Of a DNA stretch of 23,531 nt, positions 180-23,531 are shown piece after piece; position 1 is the first letter of the stretch, and every line of letters begins with the position of its first letter. The notes beneath the pieces are model-generated. The model did not search any database and was not told the origin of the DNA. It saw only the letters and a program-made list of their open reading frames with translations. Source of the DNA: a virus; the IMG/VR virus record IMGVR_UViG_3300020470_000857, positions 1 through 23,531 of that record. One strand, given 5' to 3'. Position numbers and translations under genes: made by a program.

Positions 180-545
180 GTGGCTATTATGAATATAGAG
201 AAAATGGACCCAATGGTGAGGAAGATGGGGGTGCATACCGAAGCATTCCAGAAGGCTTTGGAAGAAGGAGACGCATTGAACGCTCGACTTCACTTAGTGG
301 AAATAAAGAAATTCGCAGAGTATCTTGATGACGATTTGACGGAAGCCATCAAGAAATCAGAGAATCTAGAGGATTTGAGTGGTGTCTCTCACTTCGCTGG
401 TGGCGTTCCACTAGCCAAGTTCAATGAGACTGGACAGAATTTCGATGTATCGCAGAGAGACTCGGTTCTACCGGGCTTCATCCCTGCGGCTCGCTCTCAC
501 GGTCAAATAAAGAAATCCACTGGAACATTCGGACGTAGAGTGTGA
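180..545 (+). CDS. Small head-module protein of unknown function
   Basis: This is a 121-residue soluble protein that I do not recognise. The first 65 residues look helical and acidic (for example KALEEGDALNARLHLVEIKK and a DDDLTEAIKKSE stretch). The C-terminal half is less ordered and ends in a basic segment. There is no signal peptide or membrane segment. The GTG start at 180 is preceded by GGAAGG at 170-175. An in-frame ATG at 189 with AGTGG upstream is an alternative that would remove three residues. It lies between the probable portal end and other small genes in one transcription direction, so a minor head or assembly role is likely but unproven. Confidence 0.7.
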   Translation: MAIMNIEKMDPMVRKMGVHTEAFQKALEEGDALNARLHLVEIKKFAEYLDDDLTEAIKKSENLEDLSGVSHFAGGVPLAKFNETGQNFDVSQRDSVLPGFIPAARSHGQIKKSTGTFGRRV

Positions 546-555
546 GGGTGATTCT

Positions 556-870
556 TTGAGCGAAGAGCCAAGCACCGTAGACACTTTGATGAGCACTCTC
601 ATCACAAAGATGGAGTCTATGGATAATGAGTTGCAGGAACTCAGAAAAATGGTTAGGTCGCCTCAATCTCTTTTGAGAAAGGCAGGCTTCGTTCCTATGA
701 GCACTCCTCTATCCGAGGATGTGATGCCAGATGGCTTCAGAGGCGATGAGATTCTCAAGGAGAATAAGGATATGCCGGATAACTACACCAACGAGGAGAT
801 TCACACCATGACGTGGGAAGAGATTCACGATATGGCCGCACAGCACAAAGAAGTAAAGGAGATGTATTAG
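556..870 (+). CDS. Small scaffold-like head-module protein with WEEIH C-terminal motif
   Basis: A 104-residue protein starting at TTG 556, chosen because GAGGGTGAT lies just upstream at 544-552. The N-terminal third is a predicted coiled coil (TLITKMESMDNELQELRKMV). A loose linker follows, then a C-terminal helix with MTWEEIHDMA at residues 85-94. The same motif, MSWEEVHQLA, ends the protease-scaffold protein about 8 kb downstream, in the same order of coiled coil, linker and motif. Scaffold C-termini commonly bind capsid protein, so I infer a capsid-binding or assembly role. It has no protease residues. It could be a duplicated scaffold tail or a minor internal head protein. It ends in TAG, directly followed by the next ATG. 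Confidence 0.72.
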   Translation: MSEEPSTVDTLMSTLITKMESMDNELQELRKMVRSPQSLLRKAGFVPMSTPLSEDVMPDGFRGDEILKENKDMPDNYTNEEIHTMTWEEIHDMAAQHKEVKEMY

Positions 871-1221
871 ATGAAGCCAAGATACCAAGAGACCTCAGAC
901 GAAGTCAAGAAGATGCTACAGAAGGCAGAGAGCCTAGTGAAGAGAGCAGATGAGATAGAGAAGGGAATACATCACATGGCTACTTCTTTCAGCACAGAAC
1001 CAGCAGGTGAGGAATTCCACATAGTCCAAGGTGAGTCTTCACGCAATGCTTTCTATACCACCAATCAATCTCTACTCGATTCAAGCGATGTGGCTAACAA
1101 GGGAGCCAAGAGTTCATCCGTCAATATGGATGCTCTCTCCAAGAGGCTCAACACTCATGATGCTAACGTGAAGGAAGACAGCACTGGTGGCAAAGAACAT
1201 TCTGGACAGTCTCTTGAGTGA
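871..1221 (+). CDS. Small coiled-coil head-module protein of unknown function
   Basis: A 116-residue hydrophilic protein that begins on the base after the previous stop, with AAGGAGATG as its ribosome site inside the end of the upstream gene. Residues 1-35 form a Lys/Glu-rich amphipathic helix likely to be a coiled coil (EVKKMLQKAESLVKRADEIE). The remainder is Ser, Asn, Gly and Thr rich, looks disordered, and lacks cysteines and membrane segments. I do not recognise the family. The tight coupling to the upstream scaffold-like gene suggests co-translation and a related assembly role, which is inference. Confidence 0.68.
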   Translation: MKPRYQETSDEVKKMLQKAESLVKRADEIEKGIHHMATSFSTEPAGEEFHIVQGESSRNAFYTTNQSLLDSSDVANKGAKSSSVNMDALSKRLNTHDANVKEDSTGGKEHSGQSLE

Positions 1222-1417: not shown

Positions 1418-4400
1418 ATGCGAGAAGACGCTTTACAGGTCTATCTGAGACAAAGAGACAATCTCTACTCTGCCATTCTCAAGTCTTCTGATTACGATGA
1501 TGAAGCACAGGAATACGCAGAATCCGCTGTCAATCTCATAAGGCATGAAATCGCTTTTCCACGAACTCGATTCGATGCCATATGCCTCGGTGCTATCCTC
1601 AAGGCGGAGAAAAGCGCAAGAAGAAAGAAAAGGGAGAGTAAAATTCTCGATAAGGACAAAAGGGGAAAGGGGAAGTTACTGACTCGTTTTGCCTTGGGTC
1701 ACCCTAATCGTCATATGTTCCAGAGAAACGCTTCCGTAATGGATGCGTTGAGGGCTCTCAAACTAGATTCATTACAGCATATCGATGACCAGAGGGTGTG
1801 GGATGCTCTCGATGAGATAGCAGGTGAGCAGGGCTACCTAGACTTCGATAAAGTTCCAGAAAAGACCGAGGAGGAGAAGGAAGAGAAGAACAGGATGCTA
1901 CAAAGCGTCCTTGAGGAGCATATGGCTGGAGAGGTCAGACCTGCTGGCAGTCATTACCTACCTGTGAACAAACAAGAGCACATTCATTCTGAATGGCCCA
2001 CAGTTGACCCAGATGCAGGCATCAACGACAACTTCCACTATTGGCATGAGAGCACTCATCCTCTGAGGAGGAAGAACTCAAAGACTTCTAGGAGCCATAT
2101 GGCTGAGTTATTGAGGAACTACGTCTGGAAGACTGAGGATAGTGACCCCTTCGGCGGCGAGTGGAACTCAGATATCGAGAGTATGGCCGAGAAGCACGCG
2201 AAGGCCATAGAGAAGCATGAGAATGACAATTCGTCGCATCAGATAATCAGAGGCATGAACAAGACTCTCGCTAAGACCAAAGACGCCTTTGCGAACGACC
2301 ACTTCACCCAATGGAGAGTAGCGAATGGTCATCCGATTCAGCATCACTCTGACGCTCCCACTGAGGAAGAGAGGAAAGCCGAGATAGCGTTGCTGGATGA
2401 ACAGATTAGGAACGATTACCGAAGAGACATAGAGAGAGACCCCCAAGGTAATTACAACAATGAGGACGGTTTGAGTTACGACGCTTGGTTGAGGAGAGAA
2501 TACGAGAAGAGCAGAGAGGCCAAGTCTCCTTTCCTCGGCTCTGTCTTGGGTGGCACTATGGGTGCTCATAGCATGGACTTGCTGTATGAGAGGTCTTTCA
2601 GAAACTGGTTGGAGGAAAATCCAGAGAAGAAGAACCTACCAGTGCGAATACAGAGAAAGGAACACATGGAACAGGCTCAAGCGAACTGGGATAGCCCGGA
2701 CGCCCATCAGAGTGATGCTCTCTCTATCGATGATGCTACTATGGAAGAGCAGGAACTCATCGATGAGGCAGTTATGAATATCGACCCGAGGATAAGTTTC
2801 GGTGACTTGTCGGCAGAGCAACAGCATACCGTAATGAGCAAAGTCTACAGGAAGACTAGGGGCGATACGGAGGCCAAGAAGCACGCTCATCAATTAGGAT
2901 GGATGGGATATATGCTCGGTCTTGAGTGGTTGGAACCCAGAGACAGGACTAAGGTCATCGACCACATAATGGAACATGGCACTGATACTCATGGGAAGCA
3001 GGAAATCGCATTGGGAGATGGGACCAAGATACCGATGGGACTACTGAAGAGAAACTTCTTGATGAGATTCACACCAGAATTCAATCACACTCAACGTAGA
3101 GGTTCCTCCACCGCTCCTAATCGCGGGAAACACGTGGAGAGCGATGAGGACACCAGCGGAGAGAGGCTCTACGAGAGGGGTTCCGTTTGGAATGCCGTAC
3201 AGAGCGTTCTTGGTGAGGGTGGCGCTGATTTGCAGAACTTCCTATCCCAGATGTCCGGTCATGCACCGGGTAGCAATGTTACGATGCCCGTAGTCGGTCT
3301 GAAAGACCCGAAGCGCTTCAAGGCTAAGATAAGGGAGTTCACGGAAGGAACTCATGATGATTTGCTGAATGACGATGGCACTGCTGGTGAGCCTCATGAC
3401 AGACCAGTCCACGCGGCTCTCCAAGAGCAATATGAAGGGGTACTCAACAACAACAAGACCCCAGAGGAGGAGTTGAATTGGAAGGACTTCTTGAGGTTGG
3501 TAGGTTGGAGACAGGATAAGAACGGCGAGTTCCATCAAGTAGAAGCGCATGAGTTCTTCGATGATTGGTCAGAAGACCATCCTAGCAACATCAGCAAAGA
3601 GCAGATGGAGAGGATAGGGGAAGCGAGAGAATCCTTCTTAGGTTTCTCTAGAATGGAGAAGGAAATCAGAAACCTGTTCGGTTTCATAAAGAGCGGTAAT
3701 GGGATTGACGAAGACCCAGATGGGCATTATGTGGAAGACGAGATGGGAATGAAGAGAGGACTCTCTGACTTCTTCGGGAGACTATACGAGCATGGTGGAC
3801 ACCCAATGGACGCTTCTCATCTATTGGAAGCGCTGGCTACCACCTTCGCGCCTAGAGAGAACAACTACACCCAAAGATACAACCCAAAGACCAGACAATA
3901 CGACAAAGTGCCTGTGACTGATGTGAAGGGCGCTTTCGACGGCTTCATGGGAAAAATACACGCAACTGGTCAATTAGTTCCGAAAGGCTCGATGATGGGG
4001 CTCCTAGCACATTTCATACCAGAGGTCTTGTCTCCTTATGTGACCAGCCCCAGCGTACAGGCTGGTGCTCTCGTCAATATGCTATCTCCCATCGACAGTA
4101 GCGCTCCAGACAATCCGAAGAATCCCGGTAAATTCAAGGCTAGGAACAACAAGAACAACACGAAGGAGCATGAATCTGCGATTCTTCATGGATTGAGTAA
4201 TGCGAAAGAGGCCATGAGTATAGAGGAGCATAATGATGCGAGGGAGCATAGTCGTAATGCACAGGGTTTCTTGTTGCATCCATCGGTAGCAGAGAGAAAC
4301 AGCAAGTTCACTGACAATTTCTCCACTGCGCTCGGAATGAAGGGTGACCCCTCTTTCAGCGATAAGAAACTGAGAGAGCAAACGCATGATTACGTTCGCA

Positions 4401-7400
4401 ATGGGACTTCCATGGGGGTCAAGCACAGACCCGGAATGAAATGGAGTCAAGACAGTGATGGTATCTGGAGGGAAGACCCCAATGGAGAAGTCAAATTAGG
4501 TTCACCTTACTCGCATTTGAGCACTGACGAGATGATGAAGTTAGACATAGACCATAGGATGGCCCATCCAGACTCCGATTCAGATTTCTTGAACATCATA
4601 GACGATACTGGTCTAACCAGCGTCATTGACGAATTGACAGAGACCCCGCGAGAGAAGAGATTCAAGAGAGGTAGCGGTAGTCAACTAGACGACCTCAGCA
4701 GTGGTCTTCCAGAGACACTACCAGAAGAGGAGTATCAGATGCCTTTGACTGATTTGGACGCCCCTATGCAAACAGGAATGAGTGCTAGTGGAGAGGGCAT
4801 CGGGGGTGCTAGGTCATTGAGGAATCTCATCTCCACCCCCTCCAACCCCACTGACAGTGGCTTCGGCTCATTCAGCGTGACAGCGCCATCCAATCGCTGG
4901 GGCATCAGAAATCTAGGTGAATTGAGGAGAGTGATAGAGATGGAACAGATGGAGAGCAATCTACCGGAAGGTGATTTGGATGAGTTGATGTCTCTAGAGA
5001 CGGATATGATACAATCCTTCATCTCGGACCAATACAAATCCGGTCAAGCGCATGAGAGTCTTGAAGCCGAACAGTATAGGATGACGAAAAAGAGCATGGA
5101 TGATGCTGTCATGAGGATGGCTTCCGTATTGAAAGAGCATTTCTTGGAGCAAGACCCCGATGCATTCGACCCATCCGACCCGATAAAGTTCATCTCAAAT
5201 CATGCTCAGTTGATGCATGACGCAGAATTGATGACCATGCACTTGTCTCATGAGGAGATAGCGATGATGATGCCTGATGGTAAGGGACTTCATGTCATAG
5301 CACCAGATGTAGGAGTTCAAGAGGTAATGGGCTCAGTCGAGGGTCATCACGGTGAATCAGTCCATCATCCCATAGCCCAACTGCTAGGGATGGGAAGCGA
5401 TTCCTTCATAGGCACTGAGGTGTCCAACCAACACACACCGAAGGAGATATGCAAACTTCTAGGTCTAAACTGGGATGACCCCACAGACAAGGAAGTGGTA
5501 CAGAGGCTTCATGGGAGCCTACCCGAATACAAAGAGGGAGAAGAGCCAGCCATCAGAAGAGTCGCAACCATAGGGGACTTGCTCCAAGTAGATTCCGAAA
5601 TCAGCAAAGTGCATCCCAAGGGCGAGGCTTGGCACGGTCTAGAGAGGAGAGGCGTCAGAACCGAGAGTCAACAGAAGCAGTTGGAAAGACTTGAGTCTAG
5701 GATACAGAAGGTAGCGGAAAGCGGCGATTTGGAGGAACTTGCTAGATTGCAGGTGCAGTTCCATAGGATGCAGACTCAAGGTAATACGTATAGTAGGGGA
5801 CATGACTGGAGTTCTCACGAGACCGCTGAGGAGAGTCTCGATGGAGCCTATGATGATTACGCTGAGAGATTCAGAGCAGAGCATCCTGAGCCTTCTGTTA
5901 GATATGGTGGACGAGTGTTACCAGTCAGTCAAGACTCTAAAGGAAAACCTGCATTTGTAAATGACTTCGTTAGGAATCATCCTGTATTTACCTCTATATC
6001 CGGTCTCATGTCTATGTTCCAATCGCCAAAAAGACATGGCACTGAAGACTTGGCTAACTTCGGACTCTCTCATCATTTCGCTGACGAAGGAAATACGAAG
6101 TTAAAATACGTTAAGAGAGTGGGCTCTTTACCATATGTAGAACAAGCGAGAAGGCGTTTGAGGAACCTAATATCCTATGACCCTCAGATTATAGCGCCTA
6201 ATATGGCCGTGAACAGCAGGCAAGTTCCCTTGGTCTCCACAACCACAGTGCCATTGCATCCCGGTAGACATGGTAGGGTGATGGGTGGGGCATCCATGTT
6301 ATCGCATTACACTAATCCGAAGTTGAGGATGGAAGGTCACCTGTTGTTACCGACTGTGAGCGCCAATGTGGGTGCTACTGGTATGCAACTTGGTACTGAG
6401 ACGACTGAACAGCATCTAGTGTTCCCCAGTCACGATTCGTATGCCACTGTTCATGGTGACGATGTGACTTCTGAATTGCAGACTTCAATGGGAGACTCCA
6501 ATCTGGTTCTACCTTGGAGTAATAGCCAGAGCCCCACTCAGAGGGTGACAGAGACAGAGCCAATGTCAATGGTAGAACAACATGGCCCACAAATAGTGCA
6601 AACCAGCAGACCGACTACGATTTCGGGTCTATTGTTGAAGGAACTACCGAAGGAGATGCCCCTAATAGAGCCGATGCACAAGATTTTCGACATAGAAGAC
6701 CTCAATCAACTAAGGGGTTTCACTGGTGAATGGGTGGTATCGGTATTCTATGAGGGAGAGAGAATCAAGGTCAAGAGGAGGAAGAACAGTCTGACCATTA
6801 CTGATACGAATCACGAGAAGTTCGCTCTCTCGGATGAGATGAACAAGTCCCTCAGAAAGTTATGCAAGCACAACTTCACTGTCGATGCGGTTCTGAACTC
6901 CGGTACGTTGTATGTTTGCGATGTGATGTATTACGATGGTAACGATGTCACTGATATGAGCACTAGAGAACGGGTCAAGATACTCAGAGGGCAGTTCGAT
7001 AGTCATGAGAATGTCATCATTCCTAGCCCCTCTACACTCAAAATAACCGATGAAGACGGGTTAAAGAGTGCTGTAAAGGGGCTTCTAGAGGAGAATAAGG
7101 ACGCCAAATTGCTTCTCAGAGACGCAAAATCGACGTATATGAAGGGTGAGGAGAAGCATCCAAAGTGGATTTTGATGACTAAATCTGACGATGACTTCCA
7201 TATTCCGTTCGGAATGGAGTTAGATGAGGGTCATTTCATCCTTCATTTCTCAGATGACTTGGTGAAATACGACATAATCGATGATAGTCCCCAGAATCCA
7301 ATAGCGGCAATCGCTGGTTTCTCTGGTTCTGACTACCCGATTAGACTAGCGAAGAGCCTTGAGAGGTATTGGAAACCCGCTTTCAGTGAGATGCTGAAGG

Positions 7401-7774
7401 AATCCACACCATTGCAAGAGCCAATGACACCACGGGACACAGAGGAGGAGAGTGCAGGTATCATCAAACCCGACGACGAAGATAGAATCAAGAAGCCGAA
7501 GAAATACCTAGAGGCTCTTCTCAGATTGGAGAAGAGGCTTGATGATTTTGAGAAGGGGCATTATCCGATGTCTGGTAGCAAGGGTATGTATTTCGATGTC
7601 GAATCACCTAGAGGGCCAACTGAACTAGTTCATCCATCAACTCTACCCGATTACGATATGTTGGAACCGGAAGGGCAGGAGTTGGAACAAGAGGAAGATT
7701 ACCCCGGAAGACGCAAGAAAGCGGCAGAAACGGCACATAAGGACGAAGAATTGGAGACTTTTGGGAACCCATGA
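1418..7774 (+). CDS. Giant 2118-residue head-module protein with degenerate DNA-ligase-like domain
   Basis: One uninterrupted 6.4-kb frame starting at ATG 1418 behind GAGGAGATG. The protein is hydrophilic and rich in His, Met, Glu, Asp and Arg, without signal peptide or clear membrane segments. Residues 1 to about 1700 match nothing I know. A likely coiled coil lies at about 1416-1451, and residues about 1590-1700 are more beta-like. Residues about 1745-1925 resemble an ATP-dependent DNA ligase nucleotidyltransferase domain with its catalytic residues replaced (see the separate entry). An acidic and Lys/Glu-rich tail follows. It sits between the portal-proximal genes and the prohead protease, so an internal virion protein, possibly ejected with DNA, or a giant assembly factor is plausible. 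It does not look like a tape measure, which is found elsewhere. The function is unknown. Confidence 0.9.
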   Translation: MREDALQVYLRQRDNLYSAILKSSDYDDEAQEYAESAVNLIRHEIAFPRTRFDAICLGAILKAEKSARRKKRESKILDKDKRGKGKLLTRFALGHPNRHMFQRNASVMDALRALKLDSLQHIDDQRVWDALDEIAGEQGYLDFDKVPEKTEEEKEEKNRMLQSVLEEHMAGEVRPAGSHYLPVNKQEHIHSEWPTVDPDAGINDNFHYWHESTHPLRRKNSKTSRSHMAELLRNYVWKTEDSDPFGGEWNSDIESMAEKHAKAIEKHENDNSSHQIIRGMNKTLAKTKDAFANDHFTQWRVANGHPIQHHSDAPTEEERKAEIALLDEQIRNDYRRDIERDPQGNYNNEDGLSYDAWLRREYEKSREAKSPFLGSVLGGTMGAHSMDLLYERSFRNWLEENPEKKNLPVRIQRKEHMEQAQANWDSPDAHQSDALSIDDATMEEQELIDEAVMNIDPRISFGDLSAEQQHTVMSKVYRKTRGDTEAKKHAHQLGWMGYMLGLEWLEPRDRTKVIDHIMEHGTDTHGKQEIALGDGTKIPMGLLKRNFLMRFTPEFNHTQRRGSSTAPNRGKHVESDEDTSGERLYERGSVWNAVQSVLGEGGADLQNFLSQMSGHAPGSNVTMPVVGLKDPKRFKAKIREFTEGTHDDLLNDDGTAGEPHDRPVHAALQEQYEGVLNNNKTPEEELNWKDFLRLVGWRQDKNGEFHQVEAHEFFDDWSEDHPSNISKEQMERIGEARESFLGFSRMEKEIRNLFGFIKSGNGIDEDPDGHYVEDEMGMKRGLSDFFGRLYEHGGHPMDASHLLEALATTFAPRENNYTQRYNPKTRQYDKVPVTDVKGAFDGFMGKIHATGQLVPKGSMMGLLAHFIPEVLSPYVTSPSVQAGALVNMLSPIDSSAPDNPKNPGKFKARNNKNNTKEHESAILHGLSNAKEAMSIEEHNDAREHSRNAQGFLLHPSVAERNSKFTDNFSTALGMKGDPSFSDKKLREQTHDYVRNGTSMGVKHRPGMKWSQDSDGIWREDPNGEVKLGSPYSHLSTDEMMKLDIDHRMAHPDSDSDFLNIIDDTGLTSVIDELTETPREKRFKRGSGSQLDDLSSGLPETLPEEEYQMPLTDLDAPMQTGMSASGEGIGGARSLRNLISTPSNPTDSGFGSFSVTAPSNRWGIRNLGELRRVIEMEQMESNLPEGDLDELMSLETDMIQSFISDQYKSGQAHESLEAEQYRMTKKSMDDAVMRMASVLKEHFLEQDPDAFDPSDPIKFISNHAQLMHDAELMTMHLSHEEIAMMMPDGKGLHVIAPDVGVQEVMGSVEGHHGESVHHPIAQLLGMGSDSFIGTEVSNQHTPKEICKLLGLNWDDPTDKEVVQRLHGSLPEYKEGEEPAIRRVATIGDLLQVDSEISKVHPKGEAWHGLERRGVRTESQQKQLERLESRIQKVAESGDLEELARLQVQFHRMQTQGNTYSRGHDWSSHETAEESLDGAYDDYAERFRAEHPEPSVRYGGRVLPVSQDSKGKPAFVNDFVRNHPVFTSISGLMSMFQSPKRHGTEDLANFGLSHHFADEGNTKLKYVKRVGSLPYVEQARRRLRNLISYDPQIIAPNMAVNSRQVPLVSTTTVPLHPGRHGRVMGGASMLSHYTNPKLRMEGHLLLPTVSANVGATGMQLGTETTEQHLVFPSHDSYATVHGDDVTSELQTSMGDSNLVLPWSNSQSPTQRVTETEPMSMVEQHGPQIVQTSRPTTISGLLLKELPKEMPLIEPMHKIFDIEDLNQLRGFTGEWVVSVFYEGERIKVKRRKNSLTITDTNHEKFALSDEMNKSLRKLCKHNFTVDAVLNSGTLYVCDVMYYDGNDVTDMSTRERVKILRGQFDSHENVIIPSPSTLKITDEDGLKSAVKGLLEENKDAKLLLRDAKSTYMKGEEKHPKWILMTKSDDDFHIPFGMELDEGHFILHFSDDLVKYDIIDDSPQNPIAAIAGFSGSDYPIRLAKSLERYWKPAFSEMLKESTPLQEPMTPRDTEEESAGIIKPDDEDRIKKPKKYLEALLRLEKRLDDFEKGHYPMSGSKGMYFDVESPRGPTELVHPSTLPDYDMLEPEGQELEQEEDYPGRRKKAAETAHKDEELETFGNP
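6650..7192 (+). other. Pseudo-ligase (nucleotidyltransferase-like) domain inside the giant protein
   Basis: Residues about 1745-1925 follow the order of ATP-dependent DNA ligase motifs. A lead-in (MPLIEPMHKIFDIEDLNQL) precedes motif I, where the canonical K-x-D-G-x-R reads F1777-Y-E-G-E-R1782, so the adenylated Lys is Phe. The motif III position, normally D-G-E, reads D1823-A-V1825. Motif IIIa is well kept (LYVCDVMYYDGNDVTD, from L1831). Motif IV, normally E-G-x-x-x-K, reads A1896-K-L-L-L-R1901, followed by S-x-Y as in ligases. Motif V keeps a Trp and Lys (KWILMTK, 1916-1922). The fold is probably retained and ligation chemistry almost certainly lost. An mRNA-capping-type or RNA-ligase relative is the alternative. 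Confidence 0.6.
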
Positions 7775-7780
7775 GCACCC

Positions 7781-7821
7781 GCTTCATCTATATATCATGA
7801 CAAGACACGGTGGGAATTAGT
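7781..7821 (+). promoter_or_regulatory. Possible promoter/leader upstream of the protease-capsid genes (weak)
   Basis: This lies within one of the longest gaps in the window (47 bases). TATATAT at 7789-7795 is centred about 30 bases before GTG 7822, where an archaeal TATA box would give an almost leaderless transcript. I see no clear BRE upstream, and GGTGGG at 7809-7814 argues that an mRNA leader exists. Both readings are weak. The site matters because capsid genes are often boosted separately. Confidence 0.2.
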
Positions 7822-9183
7822 GTGCAGTACCAGATACATAGACCAAGCAATGAGAGCATCTCTCTCCTCAAGGCAGGGAATGAACTCGTGGTCGCAGGAT
7901 ATGCAAGCGTAGAACTGGTGGACAAGCAAGGCGATTTAATAACAAAGGAGGCATTGAAGGACGCATTTCGGAAGTTCATGGAGAACCCGTCATACAGAAA
8001 CGTCCAGTTAGCGCACTCAAATATACAAGTTGGAGATGTAATTCCTAATTATACAGATAGTGAAGGGAGGTTGTGGAAAAGCGAAGTCGACGATGTCGGA
8101 ATGTTTGTAGTAATACAGTTACGTGATGATATCGAAAAAGCAAAGGAAGTCGCCGCAGAAGTCCGAAAAGGAGCACTTAGGGGTTTCAGTATCGGAGGAC
8201 AGGCATTCAAGCGAGTCAGAAAATCAGACCCGAAGCATGGAGACTACCAAGAAATCAGCAAGTTGGAACTGCATGAAGTGACAATCTGCGAAAAAGGCAT
8301 CAATCCAGAAGCAACATTCAGAATACTAAAAGAAGAAAGGGAAGAAAATAAGGTGAACAAAATGACCGAAATAGAAAATGACGCAATGATGAACCAGATA
8401 GGTGATGTTCTGGGTCGTCTAGAAACCCGTCTGGACTCTCTGGAGAAGGGCAAGAAACCCGAATTCCTAGATGACAAGGACGAGAAGAAAGACGACAAGA
8501 AGAAGGATGACGAAGGCGAGTCAGTCGAGAAGACTGATGAGGATGTCGAGAAGTCAGAATTCTCAGACGTTATCACCTCAGAATACCTCAACTGGATGGA
8601 AGACACCCTAAAGAGCGCTGGTGTGGACACAGATGCCGCACGAGCACACTTTGATGGCGACGATGTCGCCAAGCAGAACATGGGTTCCACTCCCGGTGAG
8701 ATGTCTGCGAACGACCTACAGCGAACAGGTCAGACCAAGGGACGAACGAGCGAGGGTGGCAAGCCATCGACTAACGCTCTATCCCGTGCCGGACTCAAGA
8801 AGTCCGACTACCTGACTGCCGCTGATGTTGACGCAAGCGATGTAGAAGCCGCTTATGAGGTCTACAAGGCCGCGGCTCTAGAGGAGGAGTTTAGGGGAAG
8901 CCTTGAGCACCACTTCGCTGACCGATACAACGCAGAGAGGGCCGAGGAGATTTCCAAGGCTGAGGCCGCGGCTTTCGACGCAAGAAGCCCTCTAGAGGAC
9001 ATCCAGAAGTCAATCGCGGCTCTCGGAGAGAGGATTGACGCAATCGGCACACCAGTCGAGAGCGGCGAGACCATCCAGAAGTCGATGAACGTGACTGCAA
9101 TTCCATCAACGCAAGACCTAGCACAGATGTCGTGGGAAGAAGTCCACCAACTGGCAGGAAGAGCATTTGAGGGGGGTAACTGA
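7822..9183 (+). CDS. Prohead protease (XkdF/HK97-type) fused to scaffold
   Basis: A 453-residue protein starting at GTG 7822, with GGTGGG at 7809-7814. A GTG at 7810 is in frame but poorly placed. Residues 1-170 form the serine protease domain: VDKQGDLIT near 33-41 as in XkdF-like proteases, candidate catalytic His65 (LAHSN) and Ser123 (GFSIGG), and an LHEVTICEKGINPEA segment at 150-164 matching the conserved strand after the Ser. From 181 on it is scaffold-like: coiled coil, a long Lys/Asp/Glu linker at about 208-245, helical Ala/Glu-rich segments, and a C-terminal helix with MSWEEVHQLA at 436-445. It would cut scaffold and capsid subunits during prohead maturation. Codon choice shifts near the domain junction. 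The capsid gene follows after two bases. Confidence 0.9.
   Translation: MQYQIHRPSNESISLLKAGNELVVAGYASVELVDKQGDLITKEALKDAFRKFMENPSYRNVQLAHSNIQVGDVIPNYTDSEGRLWKSEVDDVGMFVVIQLRDDIEKAKEVAAEVRKGALRGFSIGGQAFKRVRKSDPKHGDYQEISKLELHEVTICEKGINPEATFRILKEEREENKVNKMTEIENDAMMNQIGDVLGRLETRLDSLEKGKKPEFLDDKDEKKDDKKKDDEGESVEKTDEDVEKSEFSDVITSEYLNWMEDTLKSAGVDTDAARAHFDGDDVAKQNMGSTPGEMSANDLQRTGQTKGRTSEGGKPSTNALSRAGLKKSDYLTAADVDASDVEAAYEVYKAAALEEEFRGSLEHHFADRYNAERAEEISKAEAAAFDARSPLEDIQKSIAALGERIDAIGTPVESGETIQKSMNVTAIPSTQDLAQMSWEEVHQLAGRAFEGGN
8350..8356 (+). promoter_or_regulatory. Internal ribosome-binding site for in-frame scaffold start
   Basis: AAGGTGA lies inside the protease gene, five bases before an in-frame ATG at 8362. 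Sequence and spacing match the sites in front of the separate genes of this window, such as GAGGTGA before 10383 and GGTGA before 11489. A consensus site exactly at the protease/scaffold domain boundary suggests functional internal initiation. Confidence 0.55.
8362..9183 (+). CDS. Nested scaffolding protein from internal in-frame start
   Basis: Initiation at ATG 8362 would give a 273-residue protein identical to the C-terminal part of the protease-scaffold protein. It starts MTEIEND, directly after the protease domain. It contains a coiled coil (IGDVLGRLETRLDSLEKG), a strongly charged Lys/Asp/Glu linker, helical segments, a second coiled coil (LEDIQKSIAALGERIDAI) and the terminal WEEVH helix likely to contact capsid protein. 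Phage lambda makes its Nu3 scaffold in the same way from inside the C protease gene. That precedent and the strong ribosome site are the basis here. Expression of the short form is inferred, and this entry overlaps the full-length gene in the same frame. Confidence 0.55.
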   Translation: MTEIENDAMMNQIGDVLGRLETRLDSLEKGKKPEFLDDKDEKKDDKKKDDEGESVEKTDEDVEKSEFSDVITSEYLNWMEDTLKSAGVDTDAARAHFDGDDVAKQNMGSTPGEMSANDLQRTGQTKGRTSEGGKPSTNALSRAGLKKSDYLTAADVDASDVEAAYEVYKAAALEEEFRGSLEHHFADRYNAERAEEISKAEAAAFDARSPLEDIQKSIAALGERIDAIGTPVESGETIQKSMNVTAIPSTQDLAQMSWEEVHQLAGRAFEGGN

Positions 9184-9185
9184 TT

Positions 9186-10349
9186 ATGGCAAGAGATTAC
9201 GTACGAACAATAACTGACATGGAGCGCTACTACTATGGCGCTGGAAACGCAATGGGCTACTCATACTCTGGTAGCGAATTGCTGAAGGCCGACAGCCCAA
9301 TGCTGTCCACGACTGCTGGAACCTACCAAGCAATCTACGGGCGCAAGGTCTGGTCGCAACTGAACCAAGAGTTCAACGCTTTCAGCATACTACCCAAGAA
9401 GCCTTGGGACAGGTCTGGATGGCGAGTCATCACTGGCAAGCCCTCGACTACCGTTGGCGGTGGTGTTGCTGAGAACGCAACCCTACCCGAGACGCAGAGG
9501 CCGACCTTCCAGCACATTGCCGCAAAGCCAAAGACCATCGCACACACGTTCGATATGTCTGAGACCGCTATCTTCCTAGCAGACAAGGATGACGGATTGG
9601 GAGACATCCGCTCCGTCCTCAAGGAAGAGATGGGCAAGCACCACGCTGAGATGGTCAACATGATGCTGACCGAGGATGTGGACGAGAAAGCAGGGAACAA
9701 CTTTGAGTCCCTAGACAGGATTACAGCCGCTGACGGAACATCATCTGGTCTGACTGGACTAAGAACAACCGGAGGAACGACACACTGTTCCGCCGCAGAC
9801 CTAGACATCTACTCGATTGACAGGGCGACCAACGAATGGTCCGAGGCAGAGGTATCCTGCGGAGCAGACAAGTCAGCCGCTAACAGGAGAACCATGAGCC
9901 TAGACCATCTGGACGATATGTTCCAGAAGATGTGGGTCCGTGGTGGTAACCCGAAGGTTATCCTAACGCACTACGACACTCTAATGAGGCTACAGCAACT
10001 GCTACAGTCCCAGCAGAGGTTCATGGAAGAGAAGAGGGTCACCCCCACCTACAACGGTGTAAAGGGTGTTCCCGGTATCGAGGCTGGATTCATCGTGGCA
10101 ACCTACAACGGTGTTCCAATCATTCCTTCCAAGGATGTCAAGCCAGACGGAATCGGCAGGCTATACTTCCTAGACACTGACTACCTACACTTCTCCACAG
10201 CAATACCGACCCAATACTTTGAGTCGGGTATCGAGACTGGCGACCCGTTCGCCATCAACAGACTGGGCCAAGAGGGGCTCTACCGAACCATGGGTGAGGT
10301 ATGGACCACTTTCTTCGGAGCACAGGGGAGCATTCGTGACCTTCAGTGA
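9186..10349 (+). CDS. Major capsid protein, HK97 fold
   Basis: A 387-residue protein with ATG 9186 behind GGGGGGTAAC at the end of the scaffold gene. The length and pattern fit HK97-type capsid proteins: an N-terminal arm, an E-loop-like region at about 60-110 (GWRVITGKPSTTVGGG), a long acidic spine helix (SVLKEEMGKHHAEMVNMML), then the P/A-domain core with GGNPKVILTHYDTLMRLQ near residue 255 and QQRFMEEKR near 280, and a C-terminal GEVWTTFFGAQGSIRDL. There is no N-terminal delta domain, which agrees with the scaffold being part of the protease gene. It uses many C-ending codons (AAC, TAC, ATC, GAC) compared with its neighbours, as expected for the most abundant product. The identification rests on pattern and gene order. 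Confidence 0.85.
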   Translation: MARDYVRTITDMERYYYGAGNAMGYSYSGSELLKADSPMLSTTAGTYQAIYGRKVWSQLNQEFNAFSILPKKPWDRSGWRVITGKPSTTVGGGVAENATLPETQRPTFQHIAAKPKTIAHTFDMSETAIFLADKDDGLGDIRSVLKEEMGKHHAEMVNMMLTEDVDEKAGNNFESLDRITAADGTSSGLTGLRTTGGTTHCSAADLDIYSIDRATNEWSEAEVSCGADKSAANRRTMSLDHLDDMFQKMWVRGGNPKVILTHYDTLMRLQQLLQSQQRFMEEKRVTPTYNGVKGVPGIEAGFIVATYNGVPIIPSKDVKPDGIGRLYFLDTDYLHFSTAIPTQYFESGIETGDPFAINRLGQEGLYRTMGEVWTTFFGAQGSIRDLQ

Positions 10350-16765: not shown

Positions 16766-17404
16766 ATGGATGAGTTACCACCAGCCATAGCCAGAGTGAG
16801 ATACTTCCGAAGATACGGAAGGGATGCTTATGTCGATTGGTTGATTTCGGAGTTAGGGATTAATGCACAGGATATACCCTATTCGACGAGAGCGAAGATA
16901 GATAGTTTCGCAAAGAGTCTTCTGAATCCACCCGCTTGGGTCGAAGCGGCTCAAGAGGTGATGAGTAAGACCCCAGAGGAGGTCGATGCCGAGTACGAGG
17001 AAAAGTGGGATGAGGCGAAGGAGGCTTTGTCCCCACCCTCTGATTCACTATGGCAAGAGGAAGAGGAGGAGGAAGAAGAGGAAGAGGCTATCGAGGTGGC
17101 GGGTGAGAACAACCCGTTCAGTGATAGCGAGATTGATTACAATTCATGGACCGTCGTTGAACTACGGGCCGAGTGCAAGGAGCGAGGGCTTCCGGTATAC
17201 GGAACCAAAGCGGAGATTGTATTGAGGCTACGAAGAGATGATGACACCGTGACACCACAACCAGAAGAAGATGAGACCGAAGCCCCCTCGGAAGAGGCTG
17301 TTGAGGAATCGTCAGATACCCCCTCGGAAGAGGCTGTAACAGAGGAAGTGAATGAAAATGCCGCAGATAGCGAACAAGGAAGCGATACTGAAGAAGAAGA
17401 ATGA
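16766..17404 (+). CDS. Acidic SAP-domain protein of the tail module
   Basis: A 212-residue protein with ATG 16766 behind TGAGG. An N-terminal helical part contains ARVRYFRRYGRDAYVDWLIS. Ten consecutive Glu codons run from 17057 to 17086 (residues 98-107). Residues about 125-158 are a clear SAP motif (SWTVVELRAECKERGLPVYG, then TKAEIVLRLRR). The tail of about 50 residues is almost entirely Glu, Ser, Thr and Pro, with a duplicated PSEEAV unit. SAP domains usually bind DNA or proteins. The acidic arms are unlike a DNA-binding protein, so a protein-binding assembly factor is my guess. Its end overlaps the start of the tail chaperone gene by 47 bases. I know no named family with this layout. Confidence 0.75.
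   Translation: MDELPPAIARVRYFRRYGRDAYVDWLISELGINAQDIPYSTRAKIDSFAKSLLNPPAWVEAAQEVMSKTPEEVDAEYEEKWDEAKEALSPPSDSLWQEEEEEEEEEEAIEVAGENNPFSDSEIDYNSWTVVELRAECKERGLPVYGTKAEIVLRLRRDDDTVTPQPEEDETEAPSEEAVEESSDTPSEEAVTEEVNENAADSEQGSDTEEEE
17283..17337 (+). repeat. 19-bp direct repeat in the acidic tail coding region
   Basis: CCCCCTCGGAAGAGGCTGT occurs exactly at 17283-17301 and 17319-17337. The 36-base spacing keeps the frame, so it encodes a repeated PSEEAV segment. Perfect identity points to a recent slippage or duplication event in a disordered tail. Confidence 0.85.
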
Positions 17405-17723
17405 ACAGCGACACGAAATACAGGTAGACCCGGAGAACCCGGATTCCGTCATGGAAGTATGGGTTAGGGATATTACCTTCTTCGATGTCCAGAACGCCGC
17501 ACAACGAATGTTCCTCATGAAAGACGGGGAAGCAACACTGGATTTGGCCTCGTATTGGAGATATGCCTTCTCCCATTGGATAGTCAAGACCAATCCAGAT
17601 TTGGATGTGTCAGAACTAATGGAACTCAATGCCTACATTGGGGAACAAATAGCCTCTCTACTACCGAAGCCAGATGAACTGGCGGAGGCCATGCAGGGGG
17701 GGTTTACCAAAGCGAACAGTTGA
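17358..17723 (+). CDS. Tail assembly chaperone, G-like
   Basis: A 121-residue protein. I chose ATG 17358, because GGAAGTGA (17344-17351) lies six bases upstream. ATG 17352 is in frame but too close to that site. It begins with a basic helix (NKEAILKKKNEQRHEIQ), followed by VWVRDITFFDVQNAAQRMFL and helical segments to PKPDELAEAM. Size, all-helical look, and position between the major tail gene and the tape measure match the lambda gpG type of chaperone, which coats the tape measure during tail assembly. Its frame ends with a seven-G run at 17696-17702 and TGA 17721-17723, and the -1 frame leads directly into the T-like ORF. The family varies too much in sequence for a firmer call. Confidence 0.75.
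   Translation: MPQIANKEAILKKKNEQRHEIQVDPENPDSVMEVWVRDITFFDVQNAAQRMFLMKDGEATLDLASYWRYAFSHWIVKTNPDLDVSELMELNAYIGEQIASLLPKPDELAEAMQGGFTKANS
17696..17702 (+). promoter_or_regulatory. Probable -1 ribosomal frameshift site (seven G)
   Basis: GGGGGGG is positioned so that the G-frame codons are GGG 17697-17699 and GGG 17700-17702, preceded by one more G. Both tRNAs can therefore slip back one base and re-pair fully (X XXX XXX). The new frame reads GTT TAC CAA AGC GAA CAG TTG without a stop and enters the T ORF. Such shifts are widely conserved between tail chaperone genes G and T. The expected product has 213 residues (115 from G, 98 from the -1 frame). Confidence 0.72.
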
Positions 17724-17998
17724 AGGTTCAACATTTTCTAAAGAATGGTCAAGTAGAAAATGTTGGAGATGTGTATCTCCATACACAATTGTTCGCCTAC
17801 CGAATAGCGAAACATTACAACATATCACTGGGTGAGGTCTATAGTATGAGTGACGAGTTATTCAAACAATCACTCGTTTGGGCTCTCGCTGTCGAGGAAG
17901 AGGAAGAGAGGAATCGCAAGATAGAGAGCGCTAAGAATAGCACTAATCAAGAAGTCGTGACATTGGACTATGACTTCCTCAATTCGGAGGACTTCTAA
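17720..17998 (+). CDS. Tail assembly chaperone T domain (expressed as G-T fusion)
   Basis: The ORF from TTG 17720 encodes 92 residues, but the frame is open back to the slippery G run, and no good ribosome site precedes the TTG. Frameshift expression as a G-T fusion is therefore more likely than separate initiation. The sequence has a helical core (LHTQLFAYRIAKHYNISLGE and ELFKQSLVWALAVEEEEERN) and an acidic end. In lambda the T part of gpG-T contacts the major tail protein and brings it to the chaperone-coated tape measure. The stop TAA overlaps the tape measure ATG by one base. Confidence 0.72.
   Translation: MKVQHFLKNGQVENVGDVYLHTQLFAYRIAKHYNISLGEVYSMSDELFKQSLVWALAVEEEEERNRKIESAKNSTNQEVVTLDYDFLNSEDF
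17727..17767 (+). promoter_or_regulatory. Strong hairpin downstream of the slippery site
   Basis: Bases 17730-17739 (AACATTTTCT) and 17755-17764 (AGAAAATGTT) are perfect reverse complements. C29-G65, a T28-G66 wobble and T27-A67 (last two digits of 177xx) extend the stem to 13 pairs around a 15-base loop. It lies 24 bases after the G run. That is farther than the usual 5-9 bases for a stimulator, but it is placed to slow ribosomes or to hide the region after TTG 17720. It lies within coding sequence and lacks a T run, so it is not a terminator. Confidence 0.6.
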
Positions 17999-20796: not shown

Positions 20797-23531
20797 ATGA
20801 CAGCGATAGGTGATTCCAATCACGCCTTCTTCTTCGACGGCGTTAGTGATAGCATAATCGTTCCACAAGGAAACTTCACAGACCTCGGTCACAAGAGACC
20901 GGAGGGGGGTCATGACGCTAGGCGAATCCTCGGTAAAGTCACACATGGTGATGCTTTGGAAGAGCGTGAGCATTCTACTTTCGTGGTAGAAAGTTGGGTA
21001 GTACCCGATTGTGGGGGGACTATCATAGAGAGGGAGGGGCAGTTCAAACTATCAATAGGCGATGTGGACACCCCCGGTCCCGCCACGTTCACGATTCATC
21101 TCAGATACGAGGGGAAGGTGCAGAAATACACTCTTACCACCGCTTCCACGGAGACTAACAACTATGATGGAACCGTATACCCACCCTCGACTCTTGGTGG
21201 TATACATGACTCATACAACAGATTCAACGCATCCTATGATGATGCTACCGATTTGAATAGGAACCATAGACCTCTGATTCACGTTGTTGGTGTGCTGGAT
21301 GACAACAAGATATCGCTCCATGTGAATGGGGTAGAGATGGCTTCCAAATCCTTCTTGAAAACATCTGATTTGACTCTGGTTACTTCTGATTCTCATATCT
21401 TGATAGGTGGAAGAGGTGGTGAGTTCCGAGGTGTCATGGAGTCGGTTCATATTACCAACACCATGACTGATGGTATTCTTGAGGGGGCATCCAAGGCCAA
21501 TGAGGGTACTAGTCTTCTCTATAGGTTTGAGGAACCCATATCACCAATAGAGGACACTTATACGTTCTCGGACACATCTGCCACTGTCATAACTCTGAGT
21601 ACCACAGATGCTATCACACTGGCGAAGAAAATCACCGGGAAGGACGCAGTGAGTGGGACGATAGACTTCACGGCATCTCCATACAGTAGTGGTAATTACA
21701 TTGTGATACAACCCGGTAGTGGGGGAAGCACCACTCACCAAGTGCCTCATGTTCCATTCAATCTGTTAATCAACCCTAACTCAATCAATCCCAACACTAG
21801 GAAACCTAACGGCAAACCACCAGAGAGAGTGAGGCTGGAGAGCATCAATACCTCCAATGGACAACTAACCATATCTAGCGTACATCTCGATTTCGACACC
21901 GCTTCCAATGGAAAGAGGGGTCTACTACATACCACGCACACAGCGAACGTCGATAATCACTTCGTGGTCGTAGGGGCCGATTTGTTGGTCGATGCCGCAA
22001 CAGGAAAGCCGTATCAGCCTCCTCATTACTCCACTCAGATAATAGACAGAACTGGGCAGATGGTTATTGATGAGAGTGGTTTCGATAATCATGGCTTCGT
22101 CTATTCCAGTAGGATGGCTAATACTGTGGACGATACGGATAACCCGTTTGCTGTGACTTGGCCTACTGCTCTGGATGATAAATTCTCAGTGGGTCATAGC
22201 GGTAGGCACATCAAGAATCATGTCGATGGGCATTATGCTATGAGATTCCTCCCCGAAGCATCTGAGGAGATAGTGAATGTCAATTCAGATGGTTCAGCGG
22301 ATATAGTGGAATTGCATTATGATACCGATACCGGAGTTAGTAGTCAAGTCTCTATTAATGGTAAATTGGATGTCTATAGGGAGATAGAGGATTCTAGAGT
22401 CATAGAGGTAGTGAATTCCTCACAGGCCACCAGTGTCTACAACTCCTTCCAAGGAGTTTCAATTACAGGCACGAAGAGGCTTCTGGCTATAGGTGGCGCT
22501 GATTTCGATGTCACACCTTTCCTACTGAAAGGGCCAACGCCAAAAAGAAAAGAGACACCTAGTGATAAACTGAGAACGCACCATCTAAGACCCTCCAAGG
22601 AGAGCAGAGTCGCTCTGTTACACGTTCCTGTATTGCGTTCTACGTATAACATGGCTCCGTATGTGGAAATTCACTACAATGCGATAGATTTGACTGGTGC
22701 TAGTATGGATGGTAGTAACACCAGTGTGCCACTTCTCATGGTGGAGAAGACAGTCCCTGCTTCCAATCTAGATGTAGGGAGTGGTAACTACATCTATGAC
22801 ATAATAGCGACTGCGGTTGCCGCTTCCGGTGGTGCTACTCTTTACTCACCCGGTGGGATGCTGATGATAGATTCTGGAGAATCCAATAGCGTAGTGCTAC
22901 AAGAACCACATTCTCTGATTGGGGATAATAGCGAGGGATATGACAGTGATGACTCTCTCGATGAGTCTCTTACTCCTGTGAATCACACCCCTTACGCACA
23001 GGCTGACGCCATACAGAATACGACACCTCAGATAGTGAAAGACTCTGTTTCTCAGAAGAGCGAGCATAAGTCAGTATTCAATCTACTGACCATGAAGGCC
23101 GCTTCCAATGAGGGAACGGATATCGATATCGGTTCCACTAGCAGGATGAAACCCGCTGTGATTCACGCTTCTCCATCCGATGGTGAATTCGACATAGGTA
23201 TCTCTTCCTCTTCCTCACAGTTGCATGAGGTCTTTGATGTCATAGACAACATAGAGTCCTTAGAGAATAACTCTGATATGATTCTGATTGTTCAACCCTC
23301 AGATAGACGGAGAACCAACCAGTTGCAACACGTCAATGGTGTTCTATCCGAGACCTCTGTGAAGGCGAATAAAATCTCTATTCACTATCTGATGAGTCGC
23401 ACTAAGGTTCGCTCCATATCTGACGCTGAGGATAGCGAGACCGGGTACACCAAATTGGTATGTCATGGTGTCACTGAAGCGCTCAGTAATGCCAATGTGG
23501 ATTTGAGAGGTAAGGGTAGCCCGGACTCTCA
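20797..23531 (+). CDS. Tail tip/fibre protein with LamG-like domain (partial, open at right edge)
   Basis: The frame from ATG 20797 has no stop up to the window end, giving at least 911 residues. I read every codon. The ribosome site is weak (AGGATGAT, about 11 bases upstream). Residues about 48-250 fit a concanavalin-like LamG fold: FVVESWVVPDCGGTIIERE, then LIHVVGVLDDNKISLHVNG near 161-180, HILIGG near 205, and a final FRGVMESVHI strand with YRFEEP. Such domains bind sugars or proteins. The rest is beta-rich, with segments such as NVNSDGSADIVELHY, a Ser-rich stretch and no visible enzyme motif. Its position after the distal tail protein suggests the receptor-binding tip or fibre. The full length and C-terminus are unknown. 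Confidence 0.8.
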   Translation, partial: MTAIGDSNHAFFFDGVSDSIIVPQGNFTDLGHKRPEGGHDARRILGKVTHGDALEEREHSTFVVESWVVPDCGGTIIEREGQFKLSIGDVDTPGPATFTIHLRYEGKVQKYTLTTASTETNNYDGTVYPPSTLGGIHDSYNRFNASYDDATDLNRNHRPLIHVVGVLDDNKISLHVNGVEMASKSFLKTSDLTLVTSDSHILIGGRGGEFRGVMESVHITNTMTDGILEGASKANEGTSLLYRFEEPISPIEDTYTFSDTSATVITLSTTDAITLAKKITGKDAVSGTIDFTASPYSSGNYIVIQPGSGGSTTHQVPHVPFNLLINPNSINPNTRKPNGKPPERVRLESINTSNGQLTISSVHLDFDTASNGKRGLLHTTHTANVDNHFVVVGADLLVDAATGKPYQPPHYSTQIIDRTGQMVIDESGFDNHGFVYSSRMANTVDDTDNPFAVTWPTALDDKFSVGHSGRHIKNHVDGHYAMRFLPEASEEIVNVNSDGSADIVELHYDTDTGVSSQVSINGKLDVYREIEDSRVIEVVNSSQATSVYNSFQGVSITGTKRLLAIGGADFDVTPFLLKGPTPKRKETPSDKLRTHHLRPSKESRVALLHVPVLRSTYNMAPYVEIHYNAIDLTGASMDGSNTSVPLLMVEKTVPASNLDVGSGNYIYDIIATAVAASGGATLYSPGGMLMIDSGESNSVVLQEPHSLIGDNSEGYDSDDSLDESLTPVNHTPYAQADAIQNTTPQIVKDSVSQKSEHKSVFNLLTMKAASNEGTDIDIGSTSRMKPAVIHASPSDGEFDIGISSSSSQLHEVFDVIDNIESLENNSDMILIVQPSDRRRTNQLQHVNGVLSETSVKANKISIHYLMSRTKVRSISDAEDSETGYTKLVCHGVTEALSNANVDLRGKGSPDS

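What the first reader, a model, noticed from the sequence alone, without database searches (positions are those of the whole stretch)
6650..7192. Dead DNA-ligase-like domain built into a giant head-module protein
The full motif order of an ATP-dependent DNA ligase adenylation domain can be followed (lead-in, I, III, IIIa, IV, V), while the catalytic positions are changed: Lys to Phe at 1777, motif III Glu to Val at 1825, motif IV Glu-Gly-Lys to Ala-Lys-Arg (1896, 1897, 1901). Motif IIIa and the Y-x-x-G after motif IV are well kept. A pseudo-enzyme next to the prohead protease suggests a structural, DNA-end-binding or capsid-internal role. I know of no described virion protein like this.
Basis: partly seen in the sequence, partly recalled or inferred. 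Interest (0 to 1): 0.82.

Follow-up and report, generated by a model that had tools for sequence, protein, structure and literature searches.

The report
Dead DNA-ligase domain in archaeal-virus protein
Hundreds of marine archaeal tailed viruses build a catalytically dead copy of a DNA-joining enzyme into a giant protein made by their capsid genes, and keep it as that protein's most conserved part, which suggests that evolution turned an enzyme into a non-catalytic part of the virus.

Summary
Residues about 1750-1922 of the 2118-aa ORF (window 1418-7774, domain 6665-7183) are a nucleotidyltransferase domain related to ATP-dependent DNA ligases. Pfam DNA_ligase_A_M matches above its curated cut-off. 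AlphaFold models of the domain and of relatives that carry an extra OB-like domain match archaeal DNA ligases best (Foldseek E 7e-8 and 3.5e-13). It is dead: motif I Lys is Phe1777, motif III Glu is Val1825, motif IV Glu-Gly is Ala1896-Lys1897, motif IV Lys is Arg1901. At least 534 IMG/VR loci encode relatives. In 133 distinct domains none has the motif III Glu and all have Arg for the motif IV Lys. The domain is nevertheless the most constrained part of the giant protein (dN/dS 0-0.057 versus 0.086-0.296 upstream). The gene precedes the prohead protease in 280/280 loci with room. The window clade lost the OB-like domain that sister clades keep. The hosts are probably marine Poseidoniales (MGII). 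The role is inferred: a non-catalytic DNA-binding or docking module of a packaged or portal-proximal head protein. Packaging is untested.

The parts
1418..7774 (+). Giant head-module protein, 2118 aa, carrying the dead ligase domain near its C-terminus
   Evidence: ORF list; relatives of 1700-2560 aa in the long clades and about 1100-1180 aa in one distant clade
6665..7183 (+). Dead nucleotidyltransferase (DNA-ligase adenylation-type) domain, aa 1750-1922
   Evidence: Pfam DNA_ligase_A_M E 8.2e-7; AlphaFold model and Foldseek to archaeal ligases; most conserved part of the protein
6743..6763 (+). Motif I counterpart VFYEGER; Phe1777 (6746-6748) at the adenylated-Lys position, Gly and Arg kept
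   Evidence: alignment to 4eq5 EFEIKYDGAR; clade table
6884..6898 (+). Motif III counterpart DAVLN; Val1825 (6890-6892) in place of the metal/ribose Glu
   Evidence: 0 of 133 distinct family domains have Glu here
6911..6928 (+). Motif IIIa counterpart YVCDVM; Asp invariant, adenine-stacking aromatic replaced by Cys
   Evidence: clade table
7100..7123 (+). Motif IV counterpart DAKLLLRD; Ala1896, Lys1897 and Arg1901 in place of Glu, Gly and Lys
   Evidence: Arg at the motif IV Lys position in 133 of 133
7118..7168 (+). RDAKSTYMKGEEKHPKW, the best-kept stretch of the whole protein; motif V Trp kept, motif V lysines lost directly after it
   Evidence: invariant columns; clade table
7184..7402 (+). 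Small conserved beta/helical domain that follows directly; in clades B and D a ~100-aa OB-like domain sits between it and motif V, lost here
   Evidence: 62 residues from motif V to the tail motif here versus 163-176 in OB-bearing relatives; alignment A5
7604..7621 (+). Conserved C-terminal motif SPRGPT of the giant protein
   Evidence: P2064, G2066, P2067 and T2068 invariant in 14 diverse members
7810..9183 (+). Prohead protease (Peptidase_S78), always the next gene
   Evidence: Pfam PF04586 E 1.3e-9; next gene in 280/280 loci
9186..10349 (+). HK97-fold major capsid protein, kin of Druskaviridae capsid proteins
   Evidence: PHROG 24667 E 4e-56; 32-34% identity to HVTV-1/HCTV-1
180..1221 (+). 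Three small proteins (180-545, 556-870, 871-1221) between the portal gene (seen in relatives) and the giant gene
   Evidence: synteny with portal upstream in relatives, e.g. L111

Best explanation
Shown by sequence and model: the C-terminal region of this giant head-module protein is a pseudo-enzyme. It is an adenylation (nucleotidyltransferase) domain descended from an ATP-dependent DNA ligase, probably of archaeal LigI type, that has lost every residue of the adenylation chemistry but stays under strong purifying selection. Relatives that keep an OB-like domain point to an ancestor with the two-domain ligase core; the window's clade then lost the OB-like part. Inferred: the domain now works without chemistry, as a nucleic-acid-binding or docking module of a large protein that is made with the portal, prohead protease and capsid protein. 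The most likely course is that it is built into or onto the prohead near the portal and contacts the packaged DNA, or its end, through the retained motif I Arg and the conserved loop after motif IV, and that it may leave the capsid with the genome as polyvalent or MuF-type phage proteins are proposed to do. Identity as a dead ligase-type domain: about 0.93. This particular role: about 0.4.
For: Homology: Pfam cut-off passed; profile to 4eq5 E 8.5e-5 and 3rr5 E 3.6e-4; AlphaFold pLDDT 73 for the window domain and 82 for the OB-bearing clade; archaeal ligases top Foldseek for both, and named viral matches are mostly ligases and capping enzymes. Dead. The lost residues are those that bind AMP, ribose and metal in solved ligases (PMC6698739). 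Still functional: the domain is the most conserved part of the protein, and dN/dS is 0-0.057 versus 0.086-0.296 upstream in close pairs. Head module: portal gene upstream, protease next in 280/280. Related Druskaviridae carry in the same slot, after a MuF-like gene, a 1210-1313 aa zeta-toxin protein, with an added ADP-ribosyltransferase in HVTV-1, the kind of cargo proposed to be packaged and injected (PMC5512222).
Against: No virion proteomics or biochemistry is at hand. The domain is near neutral in charge (pI 7.1 here; family medians 6.1-6.5), which does not argue for strong DNA binding. The DNA-wrapping partner, the OB-like domain, is missing in this clade. The Druskaviridae comparison rests on position only; no homology between the giant proteins was found. 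No other recognised domain was found in the giant protein, so the polyvalent reading is weak.
Confidence: 0.6

Rival explanations
1. The pseudo-ligase fold is now purely a protein-protein docking or scaffolding element in head assembly (portal, protease or capsid binding) and touches no nucleic acid.
For: Fixed place directly upstream of the prohead protease; near-neutral charge; all nucleotide-pocket residues lost and the OB-like domain lost in two clades.
Against: The motif I Arg is kept as Arg in 53 of 62 representatives and His in the rest; the conserved post-IV loop is basic and lies where ligases meet substrate (established ligase biology, inference here).
Confidence: 0.3
2. It is a nucleotide- or cap-like-ligand binding module, as in snurportin-1, whose m3G-cap-binding domain is a nucleotidyltransferase fold without catalysis.
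For: Relative L216 matches Pfam SPN1_m3Gcap_bd above its cut-off (28.3 vs 27 bits); 10 of 24 family members match it; snurportin also appears in the profile search of the PDB at E 0.27.
Against: The window matches it only at E 0.013, below cut-off; the ligase model fits more members (20 of 24) and archaeal ligases top both structure searches; the adenine-stacking aromatic is not conserved.
Confidence: 0.15
3. It is an unconventional but active nucleotidyltransferase, at least in clade C, where a Lys stands at the motif I position.
For: Lys at G-3 in 22 of 29 clade C representatives.
Against: In the same clade 7 of 29 have M, V or R there, motif III Glu is Y/F/V, motif IV Glu is gapped out and the motif IV Lys is Arg. 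In the window's clade no member has the Lys.
Confidence: 0.05
4. It is a decaying remnant without function.
For: Active-site residues are lost.
Against: dN/dS 0-0.057 in close pairs and 20 or more invariant residues across distant clades; more than 500 loci.
Confidence: 0.02

Closest known systems
ATP-dependent DNA ligases, archaeal LigI type (Pfam PF01068; PDB 4eq5, 3rr5, 2cfm)
   Same: Fold of the adenylation domain, motif order I-III-IIIa-IV-V, and an OB-like second domain in sister clades
   Different: Catalytic Lys, motif III and IV Glu, motif IV Lys, IIIa aromatic and motif V lysines are lost; fused to a giant head-module protein; OB-like domain lost in this clade
Snurportin-1 m3G-cap-binding domain (Pfam PF21974)
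   Same: A nucleotidyltransferase-fold domain without catalysis; one relative matches its Pfam model above cut-off
   Different: Eukaryotic nuclear import receptor; the window itself matches only weakly and ligase profiles fit the family better
Catalytically inactive DNA ligase IV acting structurally in end joining (PMC10858965, PMC9638927)
   Same: Shows that a ligase can act by binding DNA ends without sealing
   Different: There the native enzyme is active and the dead form is an engineered mutant; here death is natural, ancient and family-wide
Polyvalent and MuF-type packaged phage proteins (PMC5512222); HVTV-1 gp115 (zeta kinase and ADP-ribosyltransferase) and HCTV-1 gp109 (zeta)
   Same: Large proteins encoded among portal, MuF, protease and capsid genes; HVTV-1 and HCTV-1 use the same gene slot
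   Different: Here the only recognised domain is a dead ligase; no sequence relation to gp115; packaging not shown
T4 RNA ligase 1, the tail-fibre attachment protein gp63 (own knowledge)
   Same: A nucleotidyltransferase used in virion assembly
   Different: An active stand-alone enzyme; no homology at this level was tested

Membership tests
ATP-dependent DNA ligase | Nucleotidyltransferase (adenylation) domain fold | tested here: met
   Pfam above cut-off; AlphaFold and Foldseek, archaeal ligases on top
ATP-dependent DNA ligase | Motif I Lys that is adenylated | tested here: not met
   Phe1777; never Lys in clades A, B and D; Lys in 22 of 29 of clade C
ATP-dependent DNA ligase | Motif III Glu | tested here: not met
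   Val1825; 0 of 133 distinct domains
ATP-dependent DNA ligase | Motif IIIa aromatic that stacks on adenine | tested here: not met
   Cys in the window; aromatic in only 4 of 62 representatives
ATP-dependent DNA ligase | Motif IV Glu and Lys | tested here: not met
   Ala1896 and Arg1901; Arg in 133 of 133
ATP-dependent DNA ligase | Motif V lysines | tested here: not met
   Leu and Thr after W1917
ATP-dependent DNA ligase | OB domain after the adenylation domain | tested here: not met
   Absent in the window clade and clade C; OB-like domain present in clades B and D
ATP-dependent DNA ligase | Ligation or adenylation activity | not testable with these tools
   Needs purified protein
Snurportin cap-binding domain | Match to Pfam PF21974 above cut-off | tested here: inconclusive
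   Window E 0.013, below cut-off; relative L216 28.3 vs 27 bits, above cut-off
Polyvalent / MuF-type packaged protein | Encoded among virion genes next to portal and protease | tested here: met
Polyvalent / MuF-type packaged protein | Two or more recognisable domains of disparate activity in one polypeptide | tested here: not met
   Only the ligase-type domain is recognised in the window protein; one SAP match in one of 14 relatives
Polyvalent / MuF-type packaged protein | Present in the virion and injected | not testable with these tools
   Needs virion proteomics
Magrovirales / Poseidoniales viruses | PolB and chaperonin genes in ~100 kb genomes; capsid protein kin to Druskaviridae | tested here: met
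   In relatives of 86-118 kb: PolB in 14 of 19, chaperonin in 17 of 19; capsid match. Clade C contigs mostly lack PolB and may be another order. The window itself is only 23.5 kb and was not tested for these genes.
Magrovirales / Poseidoniales viruses | Proven host | not tested
   No host link computed; no match in the GTDB genome scan

The most novel reading that the evidence does not exclude
The domain is a dedicated virion DNA-end or nick clamp: a ligase that evolution has stripped of chemistry so that it grips the packaged genome near the portal, is ejected with it, and shields the incoming ends, making it the first naturally dead DNA ligase with a structural job in a virus particle.
Probability: 0.2. 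Interest if true: 0.88.

Novelty: new variant of a known kind. Interest (0 to 1): 0.7.

Why it matters
Conserved pseudo-enzymes show which part of an enzyme's work a cell or virus still wants once the chemistry is gone. Here a dead DNA ligase is fixed in the head module of what appear to be two groups of very abundant marine archaeal viruses, with more than 500 loci and selection stronger than on the rest of its protein. No virion or head-module protein of this kind turned up in the papers I could search. It makes a question about genome packaging and delivery in archaeal tailed viruses directly testable: what does a ligase without chemistry bind in or near the capsid? It also warns that a weak 'DNA ligase' hit in a magrovirus genome may be this dead domain rather than a replication enzyme: of 24 contigs checked, only one had a separate ligase gene detectable here.

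Tried and rejected
Chance resemblance: rejected by Pfam, profile and structure matches. Decaying pseudogene: rejected by dN/dS and invariant residues. A metalloprotease HExxH in the giant protein (HESTH at aa 210): rejected, because only His-Pro of that stretch is conserved. Origin from a nearby intact viral ligase: the only intact one found (L048, in G004) gave no hhalign match to the dead family, so it is not a close source. RNA-ligase family PF09414 in the big contigs: no match. Homology of the giant protein to HVTV-1 gp115: none. Relatives in GenBank phages: none. Relatives in GTDB genomes: none. Reference magrovirus records ON649702, OR863078 and PP497040 were not held; Philosof 2017 and Prabhu 2025 were not held.

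Full report
What was claimed.

The observation. The ORF runs from 1418 to 7774 (2118 aa) and the stated residues are correct. The stretch aa 1695-1971 matches Pfam DNA_ligase_A_M at E 8.2e-7 with 29.3 bits against a cut-off of 26.2. In the pairing with the solved archaeal ligase 4eq5, VVSVFYEGER lies on EFEIKYDGAR, which puts Phe1777 on the adenylated lysine. That single pairing is sub-threshold alone; it is backed by a family profile, which reaches 4eq5 at E 8.5e-5 and 3rr5 at 3.6e-4.

Structure. A model of the window domain (256 aa, 20 sequences) has mean pLDDT 73 and pTM 0.61. Its best PDB matches are archaeal ATP-dependent DNA ligases (4eq5 E 7e-8), followed by viral and human ligases and T4 RNA ligase 2. 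A model of a sister clade with the second domain (362 aa) has pLDDT 82 and pTM 0.72, with archaeal ligase 3rr5 at E 3.5e-13 and a human mRNA guanylyltransferase also among the top 50. TM-scores (query-normalised) stay at about 0.3-0.5, which I ascribe to domain orientation; the fold call rests on E-values, the ligase-dominated list and the sequence evidence. In the viral library the top match is an unnamed protein (A0A516LT18, E 5e-25); the named matches are mostly ligases and capping enzymes.

Is it dead? In solved ligases the motif I Lys carries AMP, motif III Glu contacts ribose and metal water, motif IV Glu binds metal waters, a IIIa aromatic stacks on adenine, motif IV Lys contacts the base, and motif V Lys contacts phosphate (PMC6698739). 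In the window these are Phe, Val, Ala, Cys, Arg and Leu/Thr. In 133 distinct domains the motif III Glu occurs 0 times and the motif IV Lys is Arg 133 times. By clade (62 representatives) the motif I Lys is never present in clades A (window), B and D, and is present in 22 of 29 of clade C, where M, V and R also occur and motif III Glu and motif IV Glu/Lys are lost. What is kept is the motif I Gly and Arg (His in some), the IIIa Asp, an Arg in the helix that follows, and the stretch RDAxSTYMxGExxHPKW.

Distribution and history. Pattern scans of IMG/VR gave 46, 86, 487 and 534 confirmed relatives as the query broadened. A scan of one genome per GTDB species gave none and GenBank phages gave none. 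The tree splits into a long-protein group (clades A, B and D) and a short-protein group (clade C, about 1100-1180 aa) with full support. Clades B and D carry a roughly 100-aa OB-like domain right after motif V; clade A, nested among OB bearers, has lost it. I infer an ancestor with the two-domain ligase core that was already dead, or died early, and later lost the OB-like domain.

Still selected. The domain is the most conserved part of the giant protein. In close pairs with finite dS, dN/dS is 0-0.057 in the domain and 0.086-0.296 upstream.

Context. The gene order in relatives is terminase-like gene, portal (near Pfam cut-off in L111), three small genes, giant gene, S78 prohead protease, HK97 capsid protein. 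The protease follows directly in 280 of 280 loci with room; the 294 loci include repeats of the same contigs and collapse to 155 distinct domain DNAs. The capsid protein is 32-34% identical to those of Druskaviridae. In HVTV-1 and HCTV-1 the same slot, after a MuF-like gene, holds a zeta-kinase protein of 1313 and 1210 aa, with an ADP-ribosyltransferase domain in HVTV-1. No sequence homology was found between gp115 and the giant protein, so this is a positional analogy.

Whose virus. Of 19 relatives of 86-118 kb, 14 encode PolB and 17 a chaperonin, as reported for MGII/Poseidoniales viruses (PMC5332604, PMC10768690). Clade C contigs mostly lack PolB and may belong to another Poseidoniales virus order; that is inference. 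The window is a 23.5 kb fragment and no host link was computed.

Ligase elsewhere. Among 24 contigs (58-118 kb) only one shows a separate intact ATP ligase (G004; L048:1222-2361, KFDGVR, DGEL). Published gene lists report DNA ligase in almost all magroviruses (PMC10160649). I could not check whether some of those calls are this dead domain.

Mechanism. Shown: a dead, constrained ligase-type domain, fixed in a head-module giant protein. Inferred: it binds nucleic acid or a partner protein without chemistry. For DNA: the retained motif I Arg, the conserved basic loop and an OB-like partner in sister clades. Against: near-neutral charge and loss of the OB-like domain here. Dead ligase IV can act by binding DNA ends alone (PMC10858965, PMC9638927), so the idea has precedent. 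A nucleotide- or cap-binding role is a live rival, because a relative matches the snurportin cap-binding model above cut-off. Packaging into virions is untested.

Novelty. The fold and the idea of a dead nucleotidyltransferase are known. A conserved dead DNA ligase in a tailed-virus head module was not found in the papers searched, which exclude most subscription journals. I file it as a new variant of a known kind.

Noticed in passing
window 17352-17998: Two overlapping ORFs in the tail-assembly-chaperone position with a run of seven G (about 17697-17703) just before the first stop; looks like a programmed -1 frameshift.
   Followed up: partly
window 16766-17404: Small protein with a SAP domain (PF02037 E 4e-12) in the tail region.
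   Followed up: no
window 20797-23529: Large open-ended ORF with a LamG/concanavalin-like match just under cut-off (PF13385), likely a tail fibre or adhesin.
   Followed up: no
L048:1222-2361: Intact stand-alone ATP ligase (KFDGVR motif I) in a virus that also carries the dead domain; its own motif IV Lys is also Arg (EGAMVR).
   Followed up: partly
L137:9998-10483 and clade C relatives: Short-protein clade keeps Lys at the motif I position (QKKPKG) although motif III Glu and motif IV Glu are lost.
   Followed up: partly
L138:6539-10480 (HVTV-1 gp115): The same gene slot in cultured Druskaviridae holds a zeta-kinase plus ADP-ribosyltransferase giant protein after a MuF-like gene.
   Followed up: partly
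window 1898-2068 (aa ~161-217 of the giant protein): A WP...HP motif (aa 193-215) near the N-terminus is shared by the long and short giant proteins, suggesting a second common domain of unknown fold.
   Followed up: no
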